Part shown: piece after piece, positions 4,181 to 43,672 of the stretch
Layout: the number at the start of each line of letters is the position of its first letter
How positions within the stretch are numbered: position 1 is the stretch's first letter
Origin: Hyphomicrobiales bacterium
GTDB taxonomy: Bacteria > Pseudomonadota > Alphaproteobacteria > Rhizobiales > Rhizobiaceae
Assembly (NCBI GenBank): GCA_900467685.1
Contig: UBQX01000004.1
Location: 62,001-126,000, forward strand
Direction of reading: 5' to 3'
Length of the DNA: 64,000 nucleotides
The notes under the pieces: model-generated
Databases searched by the model: none
Seen by the model: the letters and a program-made list of their open reading frames with translations, nothing else
Told to the model about the DNA's origin: nothing
Translations under genes and position numbers: made by a program

Positions 4181-4460
4181 CTATGGCTACGCCGATTACG
4201 CTGCCCGCCTGGATGCAGAGACGGCTTGCCCGTGCTGCGGCGCCGATCGCAACATCACATGGGGTCTCGACCCGGCCGCCGACAGCGGGCGCGAGGACAT
4301 GATGATCGCTGCCTACGACTGCGGGGCGACGTTTCAGTCGACGGCGCGTGGCATCGCCGCGGGCGACCCGTGCCCGGCCTCGGCAAACGTCGCCGCCCAG
4401 ATGCTGACCTACGAAGCGCAAATGAACGCGCGTGATGCGGCCAAGGGGAGGGCAGCATGA
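4170..4460 (+). CDS. Small Cys-containing phage protein (96 aa)
   Basis: The product has a CPCC pair at residues 20-23, a single Cys near residue 50 (AYDCGATF) and another near 71, suggesting metal binding. The start ATG lies inside the end of the previous membrane-peptide gene and its stop overlaps the start of the next gene by ATGA. Similar short Cys-knuckle proteins recur at 1031, 8248 and 8956 in this element. Function unknown. Confidence 0.62.
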   Translation: MPNNYGYADYAARLDAETACPCCGADRNITWGLDPAADSGREDMMIAAYDCGATFQSTARGIAAGDPCPASANVAAQMLTYEAQMNARDAAKGRAA

Positions 4461-5485
4461 GACCCCCCATATCTATCCGCATCCATGATTCCCATCTCGG
4501 CATCTGGCAAGATGACGCCCAGGACAAAACGTTTCGGGCAGAGGTCTATGCTGAATTAATCCGTCAGATGCGCAGCCGAAACTGGTCCATTCGACGAGAT
4601 CCACGAATTCATCAGCATTATCGGTGCTTGAGCTCAAACAATCGCCTCGGCGCGCGAGGAAATCTCCGCTGCCAGATTGAGCTATCTGGCAGAACTGTGA
4701 AAGTTGAGTTCTGGTCGACAACTGCAAAGCAGGACAACCGTAACGGACGTCGATACGATTTCGACAAGCTGGCGCGGATGCACAAGCTCGATCAGTTGAG
4801 AGTTCGGTTGGAGTTTGACCGGATCGTGTCTTGGCTCAGAACGCTGGCGAGCGTGACGATCACGCATTCTGAAGACAGAACCCTCTCGCCCATGCAGCGT
4901 ATCGAACGCGATTATGCCAAAAGCTGGCATAAGGACAAAGCGCTTGGCCGCCCGACGCCACAATACGATTCTAACCGAGAGTCGAAGAACAGATCATTGC
5001 TCGAACAGGGGCAGACTGTCTGGTTTGCGGATGCGAAAGGCCGGATCATTCGCGGCAAAGCCTTCTACAATATCAACAATATGTGGTGGGTGATCGCTGG
5101 CGGAAAGCTGCACAACAAATCGAGCAGGGAGCTTTATACCGTCCAGCCCGACAATCTTCGGGTGAAGCGCAACGAGCGCGAAGCGAGGAAGCGTCTTGAA
5201 CGCGAATTGGCGGTGGCGATCGAGCGCATGGATTTTCTCCGCGCCAACCGTCTCAAATCCATCATCTTTGGTAATGACCCTATTTTCATGATCTGGGCGG
5301 AAGATCACACCGCCTATTATTGCTCGCAGTATGCCGGCTACACGACCGACCGGATTCAGGCCGGAAAATATACCCGCGCCGAAGCGGAGGCGGAATGTAG
5401 GCGCGCGCCTGACAAACTGGAAATGGTTTGCCCAGACGGCAGCCATGTTCGGTTCAAGGATCACCGTGGCGAGGTGGCAGCATGA
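4457..5485 (+). CDS. Hypothetical prophage protein (342 aa)
   Basis: This is one of the longest genes of the array and it is not assigned to a family. The protein is basic and aromatic-rich, without signal peptide or membrane segments. Residues about 225-270 form a charged Arg/Glu/Lys-rich helical region likely to be a coiled coil, and the C-terminal 60 residues contain two Cys and many Tyr. It is coupled by ATGA overlap both to the preceding Cys protein and to the ADP-ribosyltransferase-like gene that follows. Its codon use is less GC-biased than the neighbours, consistent with separate acquisition. Confidence 0.6.
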   Translation: MRPPISIRIHDSHLGIWQDDAQDKTFRAEVYAELIRQMRSRNWSIRRDPRIHQHYRCLSSNNRLGARGNLRCQIELSGRTVKVEFWSTTAKQDNRNGRRYDFDKLARMHKLDQLRVRLEFDRIVSWLRTLASVTITHSEDRTLSPMQRIERDYAKSWHKDKALGRPTPQYDSNRESKNRSLLEQGQTVWFADAKGRIIRGKAFYNINNMWWVIAGGKLHNKSSRELYTVQPDNLRVKRNEREARKRLERELAVAIERMDFLRANRLKSIIFGNDPIFMIWAEDHTAYYCSQYAGYTTDRIQAGKYTRAEAEAECRRAPDKLEMVCPDGSHVRFKDHRGEVAA

Positions 5486-5889
5486 GCGACTATCGCGATA
5501 TCCTCGCCCGAGACCTGCCATCGTCGAAGAACATCACCGGCTTCTTTCATGGCGGATTCGGCGGCTTGCAGGTCGGCCAGTTCGTTTTGCCGCCGGCAAA
5601 GACGCGCGCTGCGACGACGGCTTCCTACACCATCGCCCGCGGCATCTGCGACCCCAAGCGCGTCTACGTGACCACCGATCTCGGCGCGGCGCTGGTCTAT
5701 GCCTGCATGCATCCTTCCGGAAGCGGCAAGATCTACGAGGTTGAACCGCTCGGCGGCCTCGAGACAGACCCCGACGCCAAGATCGAAGGTCTTTCCTATT
5801 CCTGCAACGCGGCACGCGTGCTGCGCGTGATCCGGCTGCGCGGCAAGACGATCAAGAGCGTCCAGAAAGCTATGAGGGCAACGCTATGA
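5482..5889 (+). CDS. Arr-like (rifampin ADP-ribosyltransferase-type) protein
   Basis: A 135-residue protein whose length and motif order match the Arr fold. Residues 21-25 are FFHGG (Arr: YHGT with the NAD-binding His). Residues 61-75 are VYVTTDLGAALVYAC (Arr: VYLTATLDAAIWGAE, containing the conserved Tyr). Residues 83-98 are KIYEVEPLGGLETDPD (Arr: RIYIVEPTGPFEDDPN, containing the catalytic Asp). A candidate triad is His23, Tyr62 and Asp96 or Asp98. Arr enzymes transfer ADP-ribose from NAD+ to rifampin; this divergent prophage copy could modify a host protein, a nucleic acid or a drug instead. It is coupled by ATGA to both neighbours. Fold call moderately strong, substrate unknown. Confidence 0.68.
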   Translation: MSDYRDILARDLPSSKNITGFFHGGFGGLQVGQFVLPPAKTRAATTASYTIARGICDPKRVYVTTDLGAALVYACMHPSGSGKIYEVEPLGGLETDPDAKIEGLSYSCNAARVLRVIRLRGKTIKSVQKAMRATL

Positions 5890-6485
5890 CAACGGCAACG
5901 GAAATTGAAGCGCTGCGCCAAAGCACCATTCGTCGAGCGATCGGTCCAACTATCCTGCTCGGGTCTGGCTCCTATTTCGACTTCCACGATCCAGAAGGAA
6001 GCGAAATCACCATCGAAGATATTGCTTACGGCCTTGCCTATGAAGGGCGATGCGCTGGTCAATGCTTCAGCCGCATCCTGCAGCGCCGTGTTTTCTACTC
6101 CGTGGCCGAACACTGCGTTCGAATGAGCTTTGCAGTTTCGGAGGAGTTCGCTCTGCAAGCACTTATGCACGAGGTTGGCGAAGCGGTGTGTGGAGATATG
6201 ACGGCGCCGCTGAAGTCGTTGAATCCCGATTACAAGGCAATCGAAAAGCGGTGCGAAGCCGCGATTCTTTCTAAATTCGGTGTGGTGATGACGAACCCGC
6301 TCGAAATCAAGAGAGCGGACGTCCGCATGTTGGCGACAGAGCGCCGCGATCTTCTTCCTTGGAGGGGAGAGCAATGGTCGAACAACGACCAGATGCAGGC
6401 CTATGATTTTGAGATCGTGCCATGGGAACCTGATTTTGCTGCGCAGTCCTTTCTGCTTCGCTATGGAGTTCTGACCAATGGCTGA
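5886..6485 (+). CDS. HD-domain phosphohydrolase, YfbR-like, with HD to HE change
   Basis: A 199-residue protein with the order of a phage or YfbR-type HD hydrolase: YSVAEHCVRMS (His76), then ALMHEVGEAVCGDMTAPLK (His95-Glu96), then a downstream RADVRML segment (Asp144) that would supply the last metal ligand. Family members normally have His-Asp at the second motif, so Glu96 is a conservative but notable substitution that may alter metal choice. Enzymes of this type usually dephosphorylate deoxynucleotides or related nucleotides and occur in phage nucleotide-metabolism modules. ATGA overlap with the Arr-like gene and an 8-base overlap with the next gene indicate one transcript. Confidence 0.75.
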   Translation: MTTATEIEALRQSTIRRAIGPTILLGSGSYFDFHDPEGSEITIEDIAYGLAYEGRCAGQCFSRILQRRVFYSVAEHCVRMSFAVSEEFALQALMHEVGEAVCGDMTAPLKSLNPDYKAIEKRCEAAILSKFGVVMTNPLEIKRADVRMLATERRDLLPWRGEQWSNNDQMQAYDFEIVPWEPDFAAQSFLLRYGVLTNG

Positions 6486-7449
6486 ACGCACCAACATTGC
6501 GTGGTGCGATGCCACGGTGAATTTCTGGTGGGGCTGCACCAAGGTCTCCCCCGGTTGCGACAACTGCTATGCGGAAGAGTGGAACGCCTTCCGGGGCAAC
6601 GGCATGTGGGGGCCCGGCGCGCCGCGGCGCGAGATCATGGGCGCGCCGGCGCTGATGGCAAAGCTGCAGCGGCAGGCGGCGGCATTCCGCGCGGAACACG
6701 GTCGGCCGATGCTGGTGTTCTGCCAGTCCATGTCCGACACCTTCGACAATGAGGTCGACGATGCCTGGCGCGAGCGCATGTGGGCGGCGATCGAGGCCGC
6801 GCCGGATCTGCGCATCATGATGCTGACCAAGCGCGGCGTGAACGTGCCGAAAATGGTTCCGGCATCATGGCGCGAGAAATGGCCGGCACATGTCGGCCTG
6901 ATGCAGAGCATCTGCACCCAGCGCGAGGCCAACCGCGAGATTGTCCGCCTGCTGGAGATGAAGCGCGATTTTGAAATTCCGTGGTGCGGTGTTTCCATGG
7001 AACCGCTGCTGGAGATGGTGGACATTCGCACACTGCGGATTTCCGGAAACCTTCACCTCGATGCGGCCACGGGTCAGATCATCGCTCTGCGGCGCAATCA
7101 GCCCGCGCGGCAAGCAGCCGATGTGCTTACCCACCTCGATTTCGTGATTGTCGGCGGCGAGAGCGGCAAGAATGCTCGTCCTATGCACCCCGCATGGGAG
7201 GAGCGCATTCGCCGGCAGCTGCAGGGCACCGGCGTGGCCTATTTCTTCAAGCAATGGGGCCACTTCGTCCCGGATTACGAATTCACCGGCCTCGGCGATT
7301 TCGAGGCCGTCACCATCGAGCGCGATAACAACCCCTTCGCCATGGTCAAGCTCGACCGCGTCACCATGCTCAAGGTCGGCAAGGACAAGTCCGGCGATCG
7401 GATACGCGGCGAGCGCTATCAGGCATATCCGGAGGCTCTCCTGAAATGA
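6478..7449 (+). CDS. Phage Gp37/Gp68 family protein (DUF5131)
   Basis: A 323-residue protein carrying the hallmark Cys cluster WGCTKVSPGCDNCYAE (residues about 19-34), then a MSDTFD segment, a MLTKR segment and a VGGESGKNARPM segment. These are the conserved blocks of the Gp37/Gp68 (DUF5131) family found in many phages and mobile elements. Its three-Cys N-terminus resembles radical-SAM-type iron-sulfur sites, but no activity is established for this copy. It overlaps the HD hydrolase gene by 8 bases and the next small gene by ATGA. Family call is firm; function is open. Confidence 0.88.
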   Translation: MAERTNIAWCDATVNFWWGCTKVSPGCDNCYAEEWNAFRGNGMWGPGAPRREIMGAPALMAKLQRQAAAFRAEHGRPMLVFCQSMSDTFDNEVDDAWRERMWAAIEAAPDLRIMMLTKRGVNVPKMVPASWREKWPAHVGLMQSICTQREANREIVRLLEMKRDFEIPWCGVSMEPLLEMVDIRTLRISGNLHLDAATGQIIALRRNQPARQAADVLTHLDFVIVGGESGKNARPMHPAWEERIRRQLQGTGVAYFFKQWGHFVPDYEFTGLGDFEAVTIERDNNPFAMVKLDRVTMLKVGKDKSGDRIRGERYQAYPEALLK

Positions 7450-7649
7450 CTGATACCCCCAACGCCCCCACCGAACCAGACGTCGTCGGCGAGCTCATCA
7501 AGCTCGGCCGCAAGCTGTCCGATGCCGTCGAGTATGACGTCAACGGCATGAACGGGAAGGGCGGCAACGGCGGCCTGGTGTCGAACGAGACGATCAAGGC
7601 CAACGGCAATTTCGTCCGCCTGTTGAACAAGATCGGAGCATCACAATGA
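7446..7649 (+). CDS. Small hypothetical phage protein (67 aa)
   Basis: Short acidic-basic protein coupled by ATGA to the DUF5131 gene and by ATGA to the next gene. It has a helical N-terminal half and a Gly/Asn-rich middle (GMNGKGGNGG). No family recognised. The overlaps at both ends support it as a translated gene. Confidence 0.55.
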   Translation: MTDTPNAPTEPDVVGELIKLGRKLSDAVEYDVNGMNGKGGNGGLVSNETIKANGNFVRLLNKIGASQ

Positions 7650-8251
7650 GCGAAGAGAACATCACCCGCATGTCAATCGCTGAGATCAACGCCAAGATAG
7701 CCGCCGGCGGCGATCGTACCGATTGGACGCGCGTCGATGCCCTGACCGACGAACAGATCGAAGCGGCCATGCGTGACGATCCGGATTGGAAGGATCACAT
7801 TGACGAGGATTGGTCGGGTGCGCAGTTGGTCATTCCGCAGAACATAGTTGAAGGGATGCCCAAGGAGGAGTTGCTGAAGCTTTGCTACGAACTCCAGAAA
7901 TCGGTGGTCCATTTCGAAAAACGCATGAATGAGATCGCGGCAGAGCGAAATACTCTCTGGAACGAACTCAAGGCCACCTCGGATCTAGTAGAGCAGGCGA
8001 GAAGCATCCAGATCAAGCCGATCGACTGGAAAACCGATGGCCGCTCCATGTGGGAGGATGCGGATTTCCCCCGCTACGATCTCTATCGAACCGGCTCGGG
8101 CGGATACTGGCTCGCCTACGCAGATCGCACTATTCGCTACTCCCCGAACGAAAGGGACTTCCCGAGCGAAGACGCTGCGAAGGCTGCTGCACAAGCGCAC
8201 AAAGAAAAGCGGATACGTGCCGAAATAGCTTTCGAAGGCGGTGCAGCATGA
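7646..8251 (+). CDS. Hypothetical prophage protein with central coiled coil (201 aa)
   Basis: Acidic, mostly helical protein. Residues about 70-115 (from EELLKLCYELQKSVVHFEKR onward) form a probable coiled coil. The C-terminal third contains a YDLYRTGSGGYWLAYADRTI segment like a small beta-rich domain, ending in an Ala/Lys helix. Starts and ends with ATGA overlaps in the array. Family and function not recognised; no membrane or export signal. Confidence 0.6.
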   Translation: MSEENITRMSIAEINAKIAAGGDRTDWTRVDALTDEQIEAAMRDDPDWKDHIDEDWSGAQLVIPQNIVEGMPKEELLKLCYELQKSVVHFEKRMNEIAAERNTLWNELKATSDLVEQARSIQIKPIDWKTDGRSMWEDADFPRYDLYRTGSGGYWLAYADRTIRYSPNERDFPSEDAAKAAAQAHKEKRIRAEIAFEGGAA

Positions 8252-10883: not shown

Positions 10884-11078
10884 TTGGTAAACAATCGTGA
10901 AAAAGTGGACGCATTGAAAGAGGCAGAGACCGCTATCTCTGATCTTCTGCAGTCTGATTCTCCCGGCGAGTATAATCAGGGCATCCTAGATGCGCTGAAA
11001 CTAATTGCTGAAATTATCGAGAAAGAATCTTCCGCGGACCCTGCAGAAGTTCCGCCGCCGCCGGCGCGTCTTTCATAA
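10884..11078 (+). CDS. Possible small protein at end of array (64 aa)
   Basis: Open frame from a TTG start with no strong ribosome-binding site. The product is acidic and helical (VDALKEAETAISDLLQSD, then a LKLIAEIIEKE segment) with a Pro-rich tail. The Pro-rich tail is read from DNA that is also the 3' end of the integrase gene on the other strand (65-base overlap). The helical portion before that overlap looks like real coding sequence; the tail may be read-through into antisense. Confidence 0.42.
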   Translation: MVNNREKVDALKEAETAISDLLQSDSPGEYNQGILDALKLIAEIIEKESSADPAEVPPPPARLS

Positions 11079-12270
11079 TCAGGTCAGCCCAGATTTGCGC
11101 GAGCTCGGCGCGCCGGGCCATGTGCTCGGCCCGGTTATACGCGCTCTCCACCTTGTCTTTCGGCGTATGCGCCAACATGCGGTCAATGACGGCACGATCG
11201 GCCGGGAACCGCTCGTTCATGATCGTCGAGAAGGTCGAGCGGAAGCCATGGGGCACATGCTTGTGGTGATAGCCGGCCCGGTTCAGCATATACCCCATGG
11301 CATTCTCGCTCATGGGCTTGTGCGAGTGACGCCCGTTCGGAAACAGGAAAGGGCCTCGGCCGGTCAGTGAGCGTAGCGCCCTCAATGTCTCAGTCGCCTG
11401 CGTTGAAAGGTGCACCACATGATCGCGCTTCTCGTCGCTTTTCAGATCCTTCCGCATCTTCATGCGCGCGGCCGGAATGACCCATTCCGTTTGACCTTCG
11501 TCGATACCGTCAAGTTCAAGCCATGGCGTCGTGGCGATAGTGCCAGGGCGGACGGCTGTGAGCGCCGTGAAGCGCAGCGCCAGCTTTGTGACCGGGTGGC
11601 CAGGCGTGGCCTCTACAGCGCGCAGCATCTTGCGGGCCTCGTCAAGGTCGGTGATTGCCGGCTGCCGGCCTTTCACCAGGGGGGCCATCGCCCCGGCGAT
11701 CATGGAGGCCGGATCTGTCGTCGCGCGACCCGAGGCGATCGCATAGACGAACACCGCTGAAATTCGTTGCCGCACGCGGCGCGCGGTCTCGATTGATCCT
11801 CGGCTTTCGATCATCCGGACAACGGCCAAAACCTGCGGCGCATCGATCTGCCCCGGCAGCATTTCGCCGATGATCGGAAACACCTCGTCCTCAAGCGAAT
11901 CGAGAACGTCCTTGGCGTGGCGCTCGACCCATTGCGGCTTCTGCAGCGCGTGCCATTCCCGCGCAATATCCGCAAAGGTCTCACCCTCCTTGCGGCGACC
12001 GATGACCTTCTCCACTTTCTTGATCGCCGCCGGGTCTTTCCCGTCGCGCAGGTGTTTCTTGGCGATGTCGCGCTCGGCACGCGCGTCCGCAAGCGACATG
12101 TCCGGATAATGCCCCAGCGTCAGCAGCTTCTCGCGGCCAGCGAAGCGATAGCGCCAGCGCCATATCTTAGATCCGGCCGGTGTGATATGAAGATGGAGCC
12201 CGCCGGCGTCCGTCAGCTTTATAGGCTTGTCGCCTGGCTTCGTTTTTCTGATCTGTGTGTCGGTCAGCAC
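11014..12270 (-). CDS. int: P4-type tyrosine integrase
   Basis: A 418-residue site-specific recombinase that would integrate and excise the element at tRNA-Ser. Residues 1-90 form the N-terminal arm-binding domain (DUF4102 type: LTDAGGLHLHITPAGSKIWR, then LGHYPDMSLADAR). Residues 95-195 form the core-binding SAM-like domain. Residues about 205-400 are catalytic, with Arg241 (TAVRPG), His341-x-x-Arg344 (HGFRS), His368 (MLAH) and nucleophile Tyr378 (AYNR); a Lys near 271 is in position for the beta-hairpin lysine. All expected residues are present, so it is probably active. Its start faces the tRNA, with TACCCGC repeats in between. Confidence 0.95.
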   Translation of the reverse strand: MLTDTQIRKTKPGDKPIKLTDAGGLHLHITPAGSKIWRWRYRFAGREKLLTLGHYPDMSLADARAERDIAKKHLRDGKDPAAIKKVEKVIGRRKEGETFADIAREWHALQKPQWVERHAKDVLDSLEDEVFPIIGEMLPGQIDAPQVLAVVRMIESRGSIETARRVRQRISAVFVYAIASGRATTDPASMIAGAMAPLVKGRQPAITDLDEARKMLRAVEATPGHPVTKLALRFTALTAVRPGTIATTPWLELDGIDEGQTEWVIPAARMKMRKDLKSDEKRDHVVHLSTQATETLRALRSLTGRGPFLFPNGRHSHKPMSENAMGYMLNRAGYHHKHVPHGFRSTFSTIMNERFPADRAVIDRMLAHTPKDKVESAYNRAEHMARRAELAQIWADLIMKDAPAAAELLQGPRKILSR

Positions 12271-12436: not shown

Positions 12437-12526
12437 TGGCGGACAGAGAGGGATTCGAACCCTCGGTACGCTTTCACGTACACACGCGTTCCAGGCGTGC
12501 GCCTTAAACCACTCGGCCACCTGTCC
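12437..12526 (-). tRNA. tRNA-Ser (anticodon GGA)
   Basis: The minus strand reads GGACAGGTGGCCGAG at the 5' end and a TTCGAATC T-loop near the 3' end, with CCA encoded at 12439-12437. The acceptor stem GGACAGG pairs with UCUGUCC with one G-U pair. A long variable arm is present (GTACGTGAAAGCGTAC). The anticodon GGA is at 12492-12490. These are standard class II serine tRNA features. The 3' half faces the integrase and is the probable attachment site of the prophage. Confidence 0.96.
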
Positions 12527-30527: not shown

Positions 30528-32111
30528 GTGAGACCTATCATGCAAGACATCCGCAAGACCACGATTGGCGGGCTGTGCTTCACTCTCGCGGTGACCGGAA
30601 TCCTTCCGATCCCGCTGGCCGGCGAAAACGGAATGGCGGCCTTTGCGGCCAGCGAATCCATGATCACGATTGCCCAGGCGGGCCCCGGCGTGAAGAAGAC
30701 GCTGAAGCTCGGCCTGAACAAGGCGCTTGTGGTCGAGCTTCCGGCCGACGCACACGACATTCTTGTTGCCGACCCGTCGCTTGCCGACGCCGTCACGCGC
30801 ACCTCGCGCCGTCTCTATCTCTTTGGCAAGGCTGTGGGCCAGACGAACGTCTTCGTCTTCGGCGCCGATGGCAAGGAACTCGTTAGCCTGGACATCCAGG
30901 TCGAGCGCGATATCTCGCAGCTCGAAACGAACCTTCGCCGCTTCCTGCCGGATTCCGACATCAAGGTCGAAATCATCTCCGACAACATCGTACTCACCGG
31001 CTCGGTCCGCACACCCCAGGATGCAGCCCAGGCCTCCAAGCTCGCCGAAATCTTCGTCAAGGGCGGTGAAGCCACGACGCGTAACCAGACAGCGTCCGGC
31101 TCCGGCTCGGCCTCCAGCGTCGCGATCTTTGCGGAAGACCGCCAACAATCACAGATCGTAAACCTGCTGACCATCCAGGGCGAGGACCAGGTCACGCTCA
31201 AGGTGACGGTTGCTGAGGTTAGCCGCCAGGTCATCAAGCAGCTCGGCATCAGCGGTTCGATCGGTGGAAGCAACGGCGGTATGTCGTATCTCAACCCGTC
31301 GAACCTCGGCGCCTCGCTTGGACAGATCGCCAATGCGGCTGTCAGCGGCTCGCTTGGTGGGGGTGTCAGCCTCGCTGCCTACATGAATGCGATGGAGCAG
31401 GCTGGTGTGATGCGCACCCTCGCCGAGCCGAGCCTCACCGCGATCTCGGGCGAAGTCGCCAAGTTCTATGTCGGTGGTTCGTTCAACATGGCCACGACGC
31501 AGAACATCACGGCTCCGCAGCAGAGCGTCACCGCAGCAGGTGTTGTCGTGACCTCACCGGGTTCGGTCGACCGCACGGCGGAAGCCACGCAGTATGGCAT
31601 TTCGCTGAACTTCCTTCCCGTTGTACTGTCTGCGGGGCGGATCAGCCTGAAAATGGAAACGGAAGTGTCGGAGCCGACTTACGAAGGCAACTATTCGACG
31701 CGCGGTGCCAGCAACGTCCCCGGCATCACCCATCTAGGCATTCGCCGTCGCCAGGCATCCACCACGGTCGAACTGCCGTCCGGCGGCTCGATCATGATCG
31801 CAGGCCTCGTCAGTGACGACGTGCGCCAGGCCTTCAGCGGCAACCCCGCGCTCGCCAAGATCCCGATCCTCGGCACCATGTTCCGCTCGAAGGACTTCCA
31901 GCGCAACGAGACCGAACTCGTCATCATCGCAACGCCTTATCTCGTACGACCGGTCGCGCCCGACAAGCTCTCGCGTCCCGACGACAACTTCATTCCGGAA
32001 AATGATGCTGCGACCTTCTTCCTGAACAGCGTCAACAAGGTCTACGGCAAGAAGGTCGATCCGGCCTCCGGCCAGCGCTACCACGGCAATGTCGGGTTCA
32101 TCTACAAGTGA
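30528..32111 (+). CDS. cpaC: Outer-membrane secretin CpaC/RcpA
   Basis: A 527-residue secretin forming the outer-membrane channel for the Tad pilus. After a signal segment, residues about 45-135 carry the pilus-assembly N-terminal domain (KALVVELPADAHDILVADPS), then a BON-like domain (QLETNLRRFLPDSDIKVEII), then the type II/III secretin domain with EPSLTAISGE and VELPSGGSIMIAGL. GTG at 30528 has a properly spaced GAGCGGGA; an ATG at 30540 is too far from it. Confidence 0.95.
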   Translation: MRPIMQDIRKTTIGGLCFTLAVTGILPIPLAGENGMAAFAASESMITIAQAGPGVKKTLKLGLNKALVVELPADAHDILVADPSLADAVTRTSRRLYLFGKAVGQTNVFVFGADGKELVSLDIQVERDISQLETNLRRFLPDSDIKVEIISDNIVLTGSVRTPQDAAQASKLAEIFVKGGEATTRNQTASGSGSASSVAIFAEDRQQSQIVNLLTIQGEDQVTLKVTVAEVSRQVIKQLGISGSIGGSNGGMSYLNPSNLGASLGQIANAAVSGSLGGGVSLAAYMNAMEQAGVMRTLAEPSLTAISGEVAKFYVGGSFNMATTQNITAPQQSVTAAGVVVTSPGSVDRTAEATQYGISLNFLPVVLSAGRISLKMETEVSEPTYEGNYSTRGASNVPGITHLGIRRRQASTTVELPSGGSIMIAGLVSDDVRQAFSGNPALAKIPILGTMFRSKDFQRNETELVIIATPYLVRPVAPDKLSRPDDNFIPENDAATFFLNSVNKVYGKKVDPASGQRYHGNVGFIYK

Positions 32112-42715: not shown

Positions 42716-43672
42716 TCAATACCCCAGCGCTCGGTCCACGACATGCTCGAGCGGCAGGCCCGCCTCATGCCGTGCAATCTGCGCCTCGACATGCCGCATC
42801 AGCGCCACGACATCCGAGGCTGCTGCCGCATGTGGCGTCACGATCAAATTCGGCTCCGCCCAAAGCGGGCTTTCAGCCGATAGAGGCTCCGTCTCGAACA
42901 CATCGAGCGACGCGCCGCCGAGGACGCCGTCATGCAAAGCCGCCAGGATATCCGCCTCAACCTGGCTGCCGCCACGCCCGGCATTCAGGAAAACCGGTTT
43001 GCCGAGCGCGCCGCCCTGCCTGAGCTTTGCAAACAGCGCCTTGTTGTAGATCCCCCTCGTTTCCGCCGTCAGGGGTAAAAGACCGACGAGAATATCGGTC
43101 TGCGCAAGGAAGTCGTCGAGCCCGTCGCCGTCGAAGGTCTGCATGCCCTCGATGGCTTTCGCGCTGCGCGACCAGCCGACGACATGAAACCCCATGACCT
43201 TCAGCTTGCGCGCCGCATCCTGCCCCAGCACGCCAAGCCCCATGACGCCGACGGTCACGTCGCGCGCTTCCGGCTGTGGCAGTTCTTCCCAATGGCGCGT
43301 TGCCTGTGCACGGGCATAGGCCGGCATCTGGCGCAGATGCGTGAGGCATTGCAGAACCACCCATTCGCTCATCCGGTCCGTCAGGCTGCGGTCGACGAAA
43401 CGCACCAGCGGCACCTGCTCCGGCAGACCGCCGACGCGGAGGATATGATCGACGCCCGCGCCACCCGAAAAGATCACTTTCACATCTTTCGCGCGGTCGA
43501 ACAGTTTCGGATCCTGCTTCCAGACGAGGGCATAATCGATGCCGGAAAGATCGCGTCCCGCATTCGACGGCTCCGTCATGTTGATGACCTCGCGGCCCGG
43601 AAAGGCGCCGGAAAGTGCCTTCGCCACCGCATCCGGCGGGAATTTCAGATCGACGATGATGGGGCTTTTCAT
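42716..43672 (-). CDS. D-2-hydroxyacid dehydrogenase (GhrA-like)
   Basis: A 318-residue NAD(P)-dependent reductase of glyoxylate and hydroxypyruvate type. The nucleotide-binding GVMGLGVLGQDAARKL lies around residues 145-160, with NAGRGGSQVEADIL near 235 and catalytic His in TPHAAAASD near 285. ATG 43672 was chosen (MKSPIIVDL); a GTG at 43684 overlapping the upstream ABC gene stop as GTGA is possible. Last gene of the yej operon. Confidence 0.9.
   Translation of the reverse strand: MKSPIIVDLKFPPDAVAKALSGAFPGREVINMTEPSNAGRDLSGIDYALVWKQDPKLFDRAKDVKVIFSGGAGVDHILRVGGLPEQVPLVRFVDRSLTDRMSEWVVLQCLTHLRQMPAYARAQATRHWEELPQPEARDVTVGVMGLGVLGQDAARKLKVMGFHVVGWSRSAKAIEGMQTFDGDGLDDFLAQTDILVGLLPLTAETRGIYNKALFAKLRQGGALGKPVFLNAGRGGSQVEADILAALHDGVLGGASLDVFETEPLSAESPLWAEPNLIVTPHAAAASDVVALMRHVEAQIARHEAGLPLEHVVDRALGY

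What the first reader, a model, noticed from the sequence alone, without database searches (positions are those of the whole stretch)
5482..5889. Arr-like ADP-ribosyltransferase inside a prophage accessory array
The motif order and size match rifampin ADP-ribosyltransferases, with a candidate His23-Tyr62-Asp96/98 triad. Location in a coupled phage array next to an HD hydrolase and a DUF5131 protein suggests modification of a host target (for example RNA polymerase, tRNA or a nucleotide) rather than an antibiotic, or a lysogen trait conferring resistance.
Basis: partly seen in the sequence, partly recalled or inferred. Interest (0 to 1): 0.7.

Follow-up and report, generated by a model that had tools for sequence, protein, structure and literature searches.

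The report
Phage Arr-like ADP-ribosyltransferase gene
A prophage gene encodes a small enzyme with the fold of rifampin-inactivating ADP-ribosyltransferases but from a separate phage family, and in a few distant phages a related enzyme is built into the middle of a second, radical-SAM-like protein, which hints that its real target may not be an antibiotic.

Summary
Window 5482-5889 (+) is a 135-aa gene in six overlapping ORFs of a prophage at tRNA-Ser. The Arr resemblance is real but distant: Pfam Arr-ms 25.1 bits (cut-off 25); the only PDB fold matches below 1e-3 are two Arr structures. H23-Y62-D96 align with Arr H19-Y49-D84 and stand in 60, 57 and 59 of 60 aligned rows. It is not a rifampin-Arr equivalog (23.2 bits against 130) and lies far from Arr in a tree. 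The phage family is in print: Iyer 2022 puts phage PBC5's protein in the rifampin-ART family.

New here: in six viral contigs (four distinct sequences) an ART of this family sits inside a DUF5131 protein at one loop. That protein's best PDB folds are spore photoproduct lyase, a radical-SAM DNA-repair enzyme, though weak by E-value. In the window DUF5131 is one gene away. Best reading: an active phage ART partnered with DUF5131 on a nucleobase-like target; the target is inferred. Against: 0 of 50 non-nested DUF5131 contigs held the ART, and nested ARTs form one clade apart from the window's.

The parts
5482..5889 (+). Arr-like ADP-ribosyltransferase gene, 135 aa (P0001), phrog_17296
5548..5550 (+). 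codon of H23, aligned with Arr H19; H in 60 of 60 rows of A3
5665..5667 (+). codon of Y62, aligned with Arr Y49; Y in 57 of 60 rows of A3
5767..5769 (+). codon of D96, aligned with Arr D84; D in 59 of 60 rows of A3
4457..5485 (+). phrog_7674 protein of unknown function, 4-nt overlap with the ART gene; next to the ART in phage PBC5 too (there downstream)
5886..6485 (+). HD-type 5' deoxynucleotidase-like protein, phrog_318, 4-nt overlap with the ART gene
6478..7449 (+). DUF5131 protein (C-x6-C-x2-C-Y-A); family into which the ART is nested in other phages
7446..7649 (+). 67-aa ORF, overlaps DUF5131 by 4 nt, no Pfam or PHROG family
7646..8251 (+). 201-aa ORF, last of the overlapping run, no PHROG family
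11014..12270 (-). tyrosine integrase of the element
12437..12451 (.). 15-bp att-like core at the 3' end of tRNA-Ser; further copies at contig positions 32020 and 42823

Best explanation
The gene encodes a catalytically intact mono-ADP-ribosyltransferase of the Arr fold, using NAD+ and the triad H23-Y62-D96, in a phage family separate from rifampin Arr. It is made from a coupled phage operon together with a DUF5131 protein, a radical-SAM-like protein whose best solved fold matches are spore photoproduct lyase. In some phages an ART of this family and DUF5131 are one polypeptide, so I infer that they act on the same substrate or in successive steps, and that the ADP-ribose acceptor is a nucleobase-like group (phage or host nucleic acid, or a nucleotide) rather than rifamycin, probably as counter-defence or host takeover. 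Shown here: gene, fold, triad conservation, separation from Arr, nested architecture. Inferred: activity (about 0.85), non-rifamycin target (about 0.7), partnership with DUF5131 in the window (about 0.45), nucleic-acid or nucleotide acceptor (about 0.4).
For: Fold. Triad. Not a rifampin Arr: NCBIfam rifampin_ARR 23.2 bits vs 130; Arr branch 3.79, 100/100, in a 33-row tree; HGG in 29 of 29 family rows against HGT in 3 of 3 Arr rows, and 9 instead of 15 residues between D96 and S105 in the 6 family rows printed; in a draw of 289 class genomes PF12120 found two high-scoring Arr besides the window's gene, the family profile A4 only the window's gene. Nesting: L048, L051, L058, L071 carry the ART inside one DUF5131 frame; L072 encodes the same protein as L071; the L059 contig aligns across the insert, residues 3-397, as L090 (frame not read). 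The nested ARTs in the tree keep H, Y, D in 4 of 4 rows; A6 (3 nested ARTs plus L046, L057) against the window family gives hhalign 8.4e-30. L048 vs L051: 6 of 106 aa differ in the ART, 39 of 175 and 46 of 92 in the DUF5131 parts; 23 of 100 same-residue ART codons differ. Nested model pLDDT 91.8, pTM 0.89; ranks 1-3 and 5-7 of its PDB matches are spore photoproduct lyase, probability 0.96-1.00. Genes near nested ones: C5-cytosine MTase (L048, L071), MT-A70 and ThyX (L058), ASCH (L048, L051). As separate genes: window, and 6 of 48 records with DUF5131 within 1.5 kb on the same strand. Window ART and DUF5131 share a GC3 of 0.79 and 0.80, against 0.63 and 0.59 for the upstream and HD genes.
Against: DUF5131 is in only 11 of 48 ART records, many of them fragments; none of 50 non-nested DUF5131 contigs has the ART (50 of 69 given, no positive control in that call). 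Nested ARTs form one clade apart from the window's, so the fusion may be a single event that says little about the window gene. Three other DUF5131 proteins read carry other inserts at the same loop: the loop may just tolerate insertions. In the second pair compared, L058 vs L051, the ART is no more constrained than the N-terminal DUF5131 part (36 of 106 against 62 of 173; C part 48 of 90), and in the first pair fewer silent differences in the ART would also fit a recent exchange. ASCH passes the Pfam cut-off in 3 of 50 records. No PDB match of the nested model is below 1e-3 (best 3.3e-3) and its 50 listed matches hold no Arr; Pfam Radical_SAM is below cut-off (15.5 vs 29.5 in L071). No activity or target data.
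Confidence: 0.45

Rival explanations
1. It is a lysogeny-borne antibiotic-resistance enzyme that ADP-ribosylates rifamycin-like compounds made by soil competitors (the printed prediction for the PBC5 homologue).
For: Same fold and triad as Arr; Iyer et al. 2022 (PMC9503650, section 3.7.4 part 1) gives this as the straightforward view for PBC5 and actinophages.
Against: NCBIfam rifampin-Arr cut-off missed by about 107 bits; the Arr stretch KFPGN is absent and the segment L29-V61 is 8-13 residues longer in the 6 family rows printed; nested DUF5131 fusions and the long overlapping ORF run do not suggest a resistance moron.
Confidence: 0.2
2. It ADP-ribosylates a host protein such as RNA polymerase during infection, in the manner of T4 Alt/ModA.
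For: RecT in the ART locus L006, with exonuclease- and integrase-like neighbours in other loci (named from recall), points to an early region; Iyer 2022 calls macromolecule modification the largest group of DNA viral domains in this network.
Against: The Arr-type fold is known for a small-molecule acceptor (recalled); no protein-targeting ART family was matched, and in the fold search only cholera-toxin A chains at E 0.1 or worse; nothing beside the gene points to transcription.
Confidence: 0.15
3. It modifies or destroys a soluble nucleotide or NAD-derived immune messenger of the host (counter-defence on a small molecule).
For: Iyer 2022 raises action on diffusible immune compounds for this family; the coupled HD protein belongs to a dNMP-phosphatase family.
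Against: No direct support; I did not search the other loci for the HD family.
Confidence: 0.15
4. It is a toxin, superinfection-exclusion or defence ART of the lysogen.
For: Small single-domain ART with intact triad in a prophage; the neighbour DUF5131 matches two PADLOC candidate-defence models, PDC-M41B 1.2e-35 and PDC-M30B 1.4e-35.
Against: PADLOC gives no match for the ART; no antitoxin-type gene adjoins it among the proteins scanned (HTH genes at 158 and 2431 match antitoxin-type models below cut-off and are not adjacent).
Confidence: 0.08

Closest known systems
Rifampin ADP-ribosyltransferase Arr (Pfam PF12120; PDB 2hw2, 9iaf)
   Same: fold, H-Y-D positions, size, order of motifs
   Different: distant sequence (tree branch 3.79), HGG not HGT, shorter loop after D96, longer segment before Y62, NCBIfam equivalog cut-off not met
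Phage ARTs of the 'rifampin ART family' in Iyer et al. 2022 (PBC5, Microbacterium and Gordonia phages)
   Same: the PBC5 homologue (60.4% identical over query residues 37-132) was already placed there in print
   Different: the main text holds no DUF5131, radical, gp68, ASCH or nested (term searches); supplements not read
Spore photoproduct lyase (radical SAM DNA-repair enzyme; function recalled)
   Same: best solved fold matches of the nested DUF5131 protein; N-terminal Cys cluster
   Different: weak E-values; C-x6-C-x2-C in most DUF5131 proteins read, C-x3-C-x2-C in L071/L072; activity of DUF5131 unknown
Tpt1/KptA RNA 2'-phosphotransferase
   Same: listed among fold matches of the nested model, ranks 14-17 and 26
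   Different: E 0.24-0.46, not significant

Membership tests
Arr-ms, Pfam PF12120 | score at or above the curated Pfam cut-off (25 bits) | tested here: met
   25.1 bits, by a hair; a relative, L038, has 32 bits; the nested proteins were not reported for it at E 0.01 or 0.1 (L071)
Arr-ms, Pfam PF12120 | Arr fold | tested here: met
   Foldseek 2hw2 3.5e-6, probability 1.00, TM 0.53
NAD(+)--rifampin ADP-ribosyltransferase (NF033144 equivalog) | score at or above 130 bits | tested here: not met
   23.2 bits
NAD(+)--rifampin ADP-ribosyltransferase (NF033144 equivalog) | catalytic H-Y-D (H19, Y49, D84; role recalled) | tested here: met
   alignment with 2hw2 and three Arr rows
NAD(+)--rifampin ADP-ribosyltransferase (NF033144 equivalog) | ADP-ribosylation of rifamycins | not testable with these tools
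   needs an enzyme assay
phrog_17296 | significant match over nearly the whole profile | tested here: met
   2e-34, profile 4-119 of 125
DUF5131 with nested ART | ART inside the DUF5131 frame | tested here: not met
   in the window they are separate genes with the HD gene between
Radical SAM (for DUF5131) | Pfam Radical_SAM cut-off 29.5 bits | tested here: not met
   15.5 bits in L071; not reported for L048, L051, L058 at E 0.01 or for the window's DUF5131 at E 0.1
Radical SAM (for DUF5131) | radical-SAM-like fold with N-terminal Cys cluster | tested here: inconclusive
   spore photoproduct lyase best, E 3.3e-3, probability 0.96-1.00; C20, C27, C30 invariant in the 8 rows of A5

The most novel reading that the evidence does not exclude
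DUF5131 plus this ART is a two-step nucleic-acid hypermodification (or base-tagging) machine: radical chemistry on a base, in some phages next to a cytosine-C5 or adenine methyltransferase, followed by attachment of ADP-ribose, which shields phage DNA or marks host nucleic acid. The window encodes it as two genes, and the nested phages as one protein.
Probability: 0.12. Interest if true: 0.9.

Novelty: new variant of a known kind. Interest (0 to 1): 0.5.

Why it matters
Phage relatives of Arr have been read as antibiotic-resistance enzymes. Their distance from Arr, and fusion of the same domain to a protein that resembles a radical-SAM DNA-repair enzyme in fold, give the orphan families DUF5131 and phrog_17296 a shared, testable function. 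If the acceptor is a nucleobase, this would be a new class of phage nucleic-acid modification and would change how such genes are annotated as resistance genes.

Tried and rejected
Rejected: the gene as a rifampin-Arr equivalog; a general DUF5131-ART partnership in phages (0 of 50 non-nested DUF5131 contigs); ASCH as a constant partner (3 of 50 by Pfam). A phrog_874 cluster (family tested for 2 members) lies on the same strand, median 15 nt before the ART match, in 12 of 62 regions (mechanical ORFs, near-copies kept); it looks ASCH-like, but Pfam gives no match and hhalign supports 24 columns only, E 3.1e-6, probability 88. phrog_7674: 4 of 50, one weak. PADLOC: none for the ART. Single-protein PDB sequence searches were weak. 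Paper searches without any paper: 'DUF5131' (56), radical SAM + ADP-ribosyltransferase domain + phage (127), 'Arr-like' + bacteriophage + ADP-ribosyltransferase (35). Others: 'gp37gp68', one listing (101); further listings in 34, 78, 98, 99, 102, 140.

Rows dropped: these ART loci were left out for the 50-record limit, as copies or as whole genomes: L008-L014, L024, L029, L030, L036, L041, L055, L059, also L072; L071 and L080 were added in 81 and 82. From the clustering: L014 and L008-L011. One search took 50 of 69. The three Arr rows (L011, L084, L085) were called Arr from sequence and, for L084 and L085, PF12120, not by NCBIfam. On re-reading I raised the defence/toxin rival from 0.05 to 0.08 because of the PADLOC matches of DUF5131.

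Full report
The gene. Window 5482-5889 (+) is an ATG-to-TGA frame of 135 aa. It overlaps the gene before it (4457-5485, phrog_7674) and after it (5886-6485, HD-type, phrog_318) by 4 nt each; DUF5131 (6478-7449) and two more ORFs follow with overlaps of 8, 4 and 4 nt. By layout this is one coupled operon; transcription was not tested.

The element. A repressor-like gene (158-757) and a tyrosine integrase (11014-12270, -) lie on either side. The tRNA-Ser at 12437-12526 ends in a 15-bp word that recurs at contig positions 42823 and 32020 and nowhere else, on either strand, in the 101 kb examined. I read this as two elements in tandem at one tRNA: the ART element, about 31.6 kb (window -19177 to 12451), and a 10.8-kb element to its left with its own integrase and a protease-head protein. 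The ART element also has matches to a major head protein, an endolysin, a helicase and, in three of its proteins, phage DNA-methyltransferase families (two, one at 1827-2480). I did not annotate it fully and cannot say whether it is complete. The genome's name is not told; a same-family genome, G340, has a contig of the same length (1301628) as the Sinorhizobium meliloti 4H41 contig of L012, so I infer a member of the Rhizobiaceae.

Is it Arr? Pfam Arr-ms scores 25.1 bits against a cut-off of 25. One sequence alone finds PDB Arr only at 0.027; the 60-row profile A3 finds it at 6.9e-5 and aligns H23, Y62 and D96 with H19, Y49 and D84 (that these are Arr's catalytic residues is recalled, the paper was not held). 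AlphaFold gave pLDDT 79.9 and pTM 0.77, and Foldseek against PDB gave two matches below 1e-3 of 306, both Arr, TM 0.53; cholera-toxin A chains follow at E 0.1 or worse. In viral predicted structures 9 of 569 matches are below 1e-3, one of them named rifampin ADP-ribosyl transferase. The fold claim stands. Membership in rifampin Arr does not: NCBIfam 23.2 of 130 bits; three Arr rows stand off by a branch of 3.79 with 100/100 support in a 33-row tree without outgroup; G25 and G28, fixed in 29 of 29 family rows, are T and D in 3 of 3 Arr rows; in the rows printed, 9 rather than 15 residues separate D96 and S105, and 31-35 rather than 22-23 run from L29 to V61.

Relatives. Scans gave 54 viral loci and two in genome contigs. 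In the 60 rows of A3, the window's included and near-copies kept, H23 stands in 60, Y62 in 57, D96 in 59, D98 in 56. Five of 394 genomes of the family match: the own one, L008 (62%), L009 (43%), a weak L010, and L011, which reads as a true Arr. In a draw of 289 class genomes PF12120 rang in three, the own one and two high-scoring Arr, the profile A4 only in the own one (the listing shows at most 16 candidates scored per genome). The named phage homologue is PBC5 orf74, annotated unknown. Iyer et al. 2022 (PMC9503650; abstract, section 3.7.4 part 1 and term passages seen) already place the PBC5 protein in the rifampin ART family and predict action on rifamycin-like antibiotics or immune compounds. 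The family is therefore not new.

The new observation. Searching 48 of the ART records for DUF5131 gave 11 hits. In three of them the hit spans the ART: L048, L051 and L058 each encode one protein of 391-410 aa that begins and ends as DUF5131 and holds the ART between 'EP[LM]LGPVDL' and 'W-V-[IV]-x-GGE'. A further scan added L071 and L072, which encode one and the same 334-aa protein with C-x3-C-x2-C, DUF5131 at 3.7e-38, the ART at the corresponding place, and a C5-cytosine methyltransferase frame directly behind. The L059 contig aligns across the insert as well (L090; frame not read). That makes six contigs and four distinct sequences. The nested ARTs form one clade (98/91) and keep the triad in 4 of 4 rows. 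Between L048 and L051 the ART differs at 6 of 106 residues, the DUF5131 parts at 39 of 175 and 46 of 92; between L058 and L051 at 36 of 106, 62 of 173 and 48 of 90, so stronger constraint on the ART shows in one pair only. The nested protein is modelled with pLDDT 91.8 and pTM 0.89. Spore photoproduct lyase takes ranks 1-3 and 5-7 of its PDB matches (probability 0.96-1.00, best E 3.3e-3, none below 1e-3), followed by a radical-SAM dehydratase; Tpt1/KptA appear at ranks 14-17 with E 0.24-0.30, and no Arr is among the 50 listed.

Separate genes. In the other eight of the 11 records DUF5131 lies on the same strand within 1.5 kb of the ART in six (PBC5, L005, L020, L021, L031, L032) and on the opposite strand 3-5 kb away in two (L006, L007) (positions). 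In the window the two genes are separated by the HD gene only, and ART and DUF5131 share a high GC3 (0.79, 0.80) that the HD gene (0.59) and the upstream gene (0.63) lack.

Limits of the link. None of 50 non-nested DUF5131 contigs, of 69 found with a nested query, carries the ART; the tool warns that an empty answer without a known positive shows nothing. Three other DUF5131 proteins, of two phages and a plasmid, have other inserts at the same loop, judged by eye, so the loop may be permissive. I had no set of matched phages to test enrichment. DUF5131 also matches two PADLOC candidate-defence models, so its role could be defence rather than modification.

Mechanism. Shown: fold, triad, operon layout, distance from Arr, nested architecture. 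Inferred: NAD+-dependent transfer of ADP-ribose; cooperation with DUF5131; a nucleobase-like acceptor, because the partner resembles a DNA-repair radical-SAM enzyme and nested genes sit near DNA methyltransferases (L048, L058, L071), ThyX (L058) and ASCH (L048, L051). RNA polymerase as target has no specific support. Rifamycin remains possible at about 0.2.

Verdict. A real, conserved, probably active phage ART; a new member of a family already in print, made more interesting by a nested fusion with DUF5131 that I did not find in the texts I could search.

Noticed in passing
contig C28:32020-42823 (L082:7020-17837), left of the window: A 10.8-kb element with its own integrase and a protease-major-head protein lies in tandem with the ART element, sharing the 15-bp tRNA-Ser core; it could be a satellite-type element.
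   Followed up: partly
window 5886-6485: The HD-type protein reads LMHEVGEAV where phage 5'-nucleotidases usually have HD (usual motif recalled), so a metal ligand may be changed.
   Followed up: no
L064:3998-5287, L065:2908-4101, L066:3007-4110, window 6478-7449: DUF5131 proteins carry inserts of different length and sequence at the loop where other phages carry the ART.
   Followed up: partly
window 6478-7449: The DUF5131 protein matches two PADLOC candidate-defence models, PDC-M41B and PDC-M30B, at about 1e-35.
   Followed up: no
L064:3998-6660; L071:551-3003; L048:5416-8809: DUF5131 genes are followed by a DNA cytosine methyltransferase gene: directly in L064 and L071, after one more gene in L048.
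   Followed up: partly
L048:6652-7206: An acetyltransferase-like protein that resembles the phage Mom-like group (recalled; Pfam gives no family over its cut-off) sits between the nested gene and a cytosine methyltransferase.
   Followed up: no
L010:1495-1821: A divergent HGG-type ART-like frame lies directly behind a long ORF (4-1494) in a same-family genome; no clear ATG start.
   Followed up: no
L006:1128-1994: A protein beside DUF5131 that looks like the three-Cys-motif partner TcmP (name recalled; Pfam finds nothing over cut-off).
   Followed up: no
L082:18104-18940: A transposase-like ORF (type recalled, not tested) lies just inside the left att-like repeat of the ART element.
   Followed up: no
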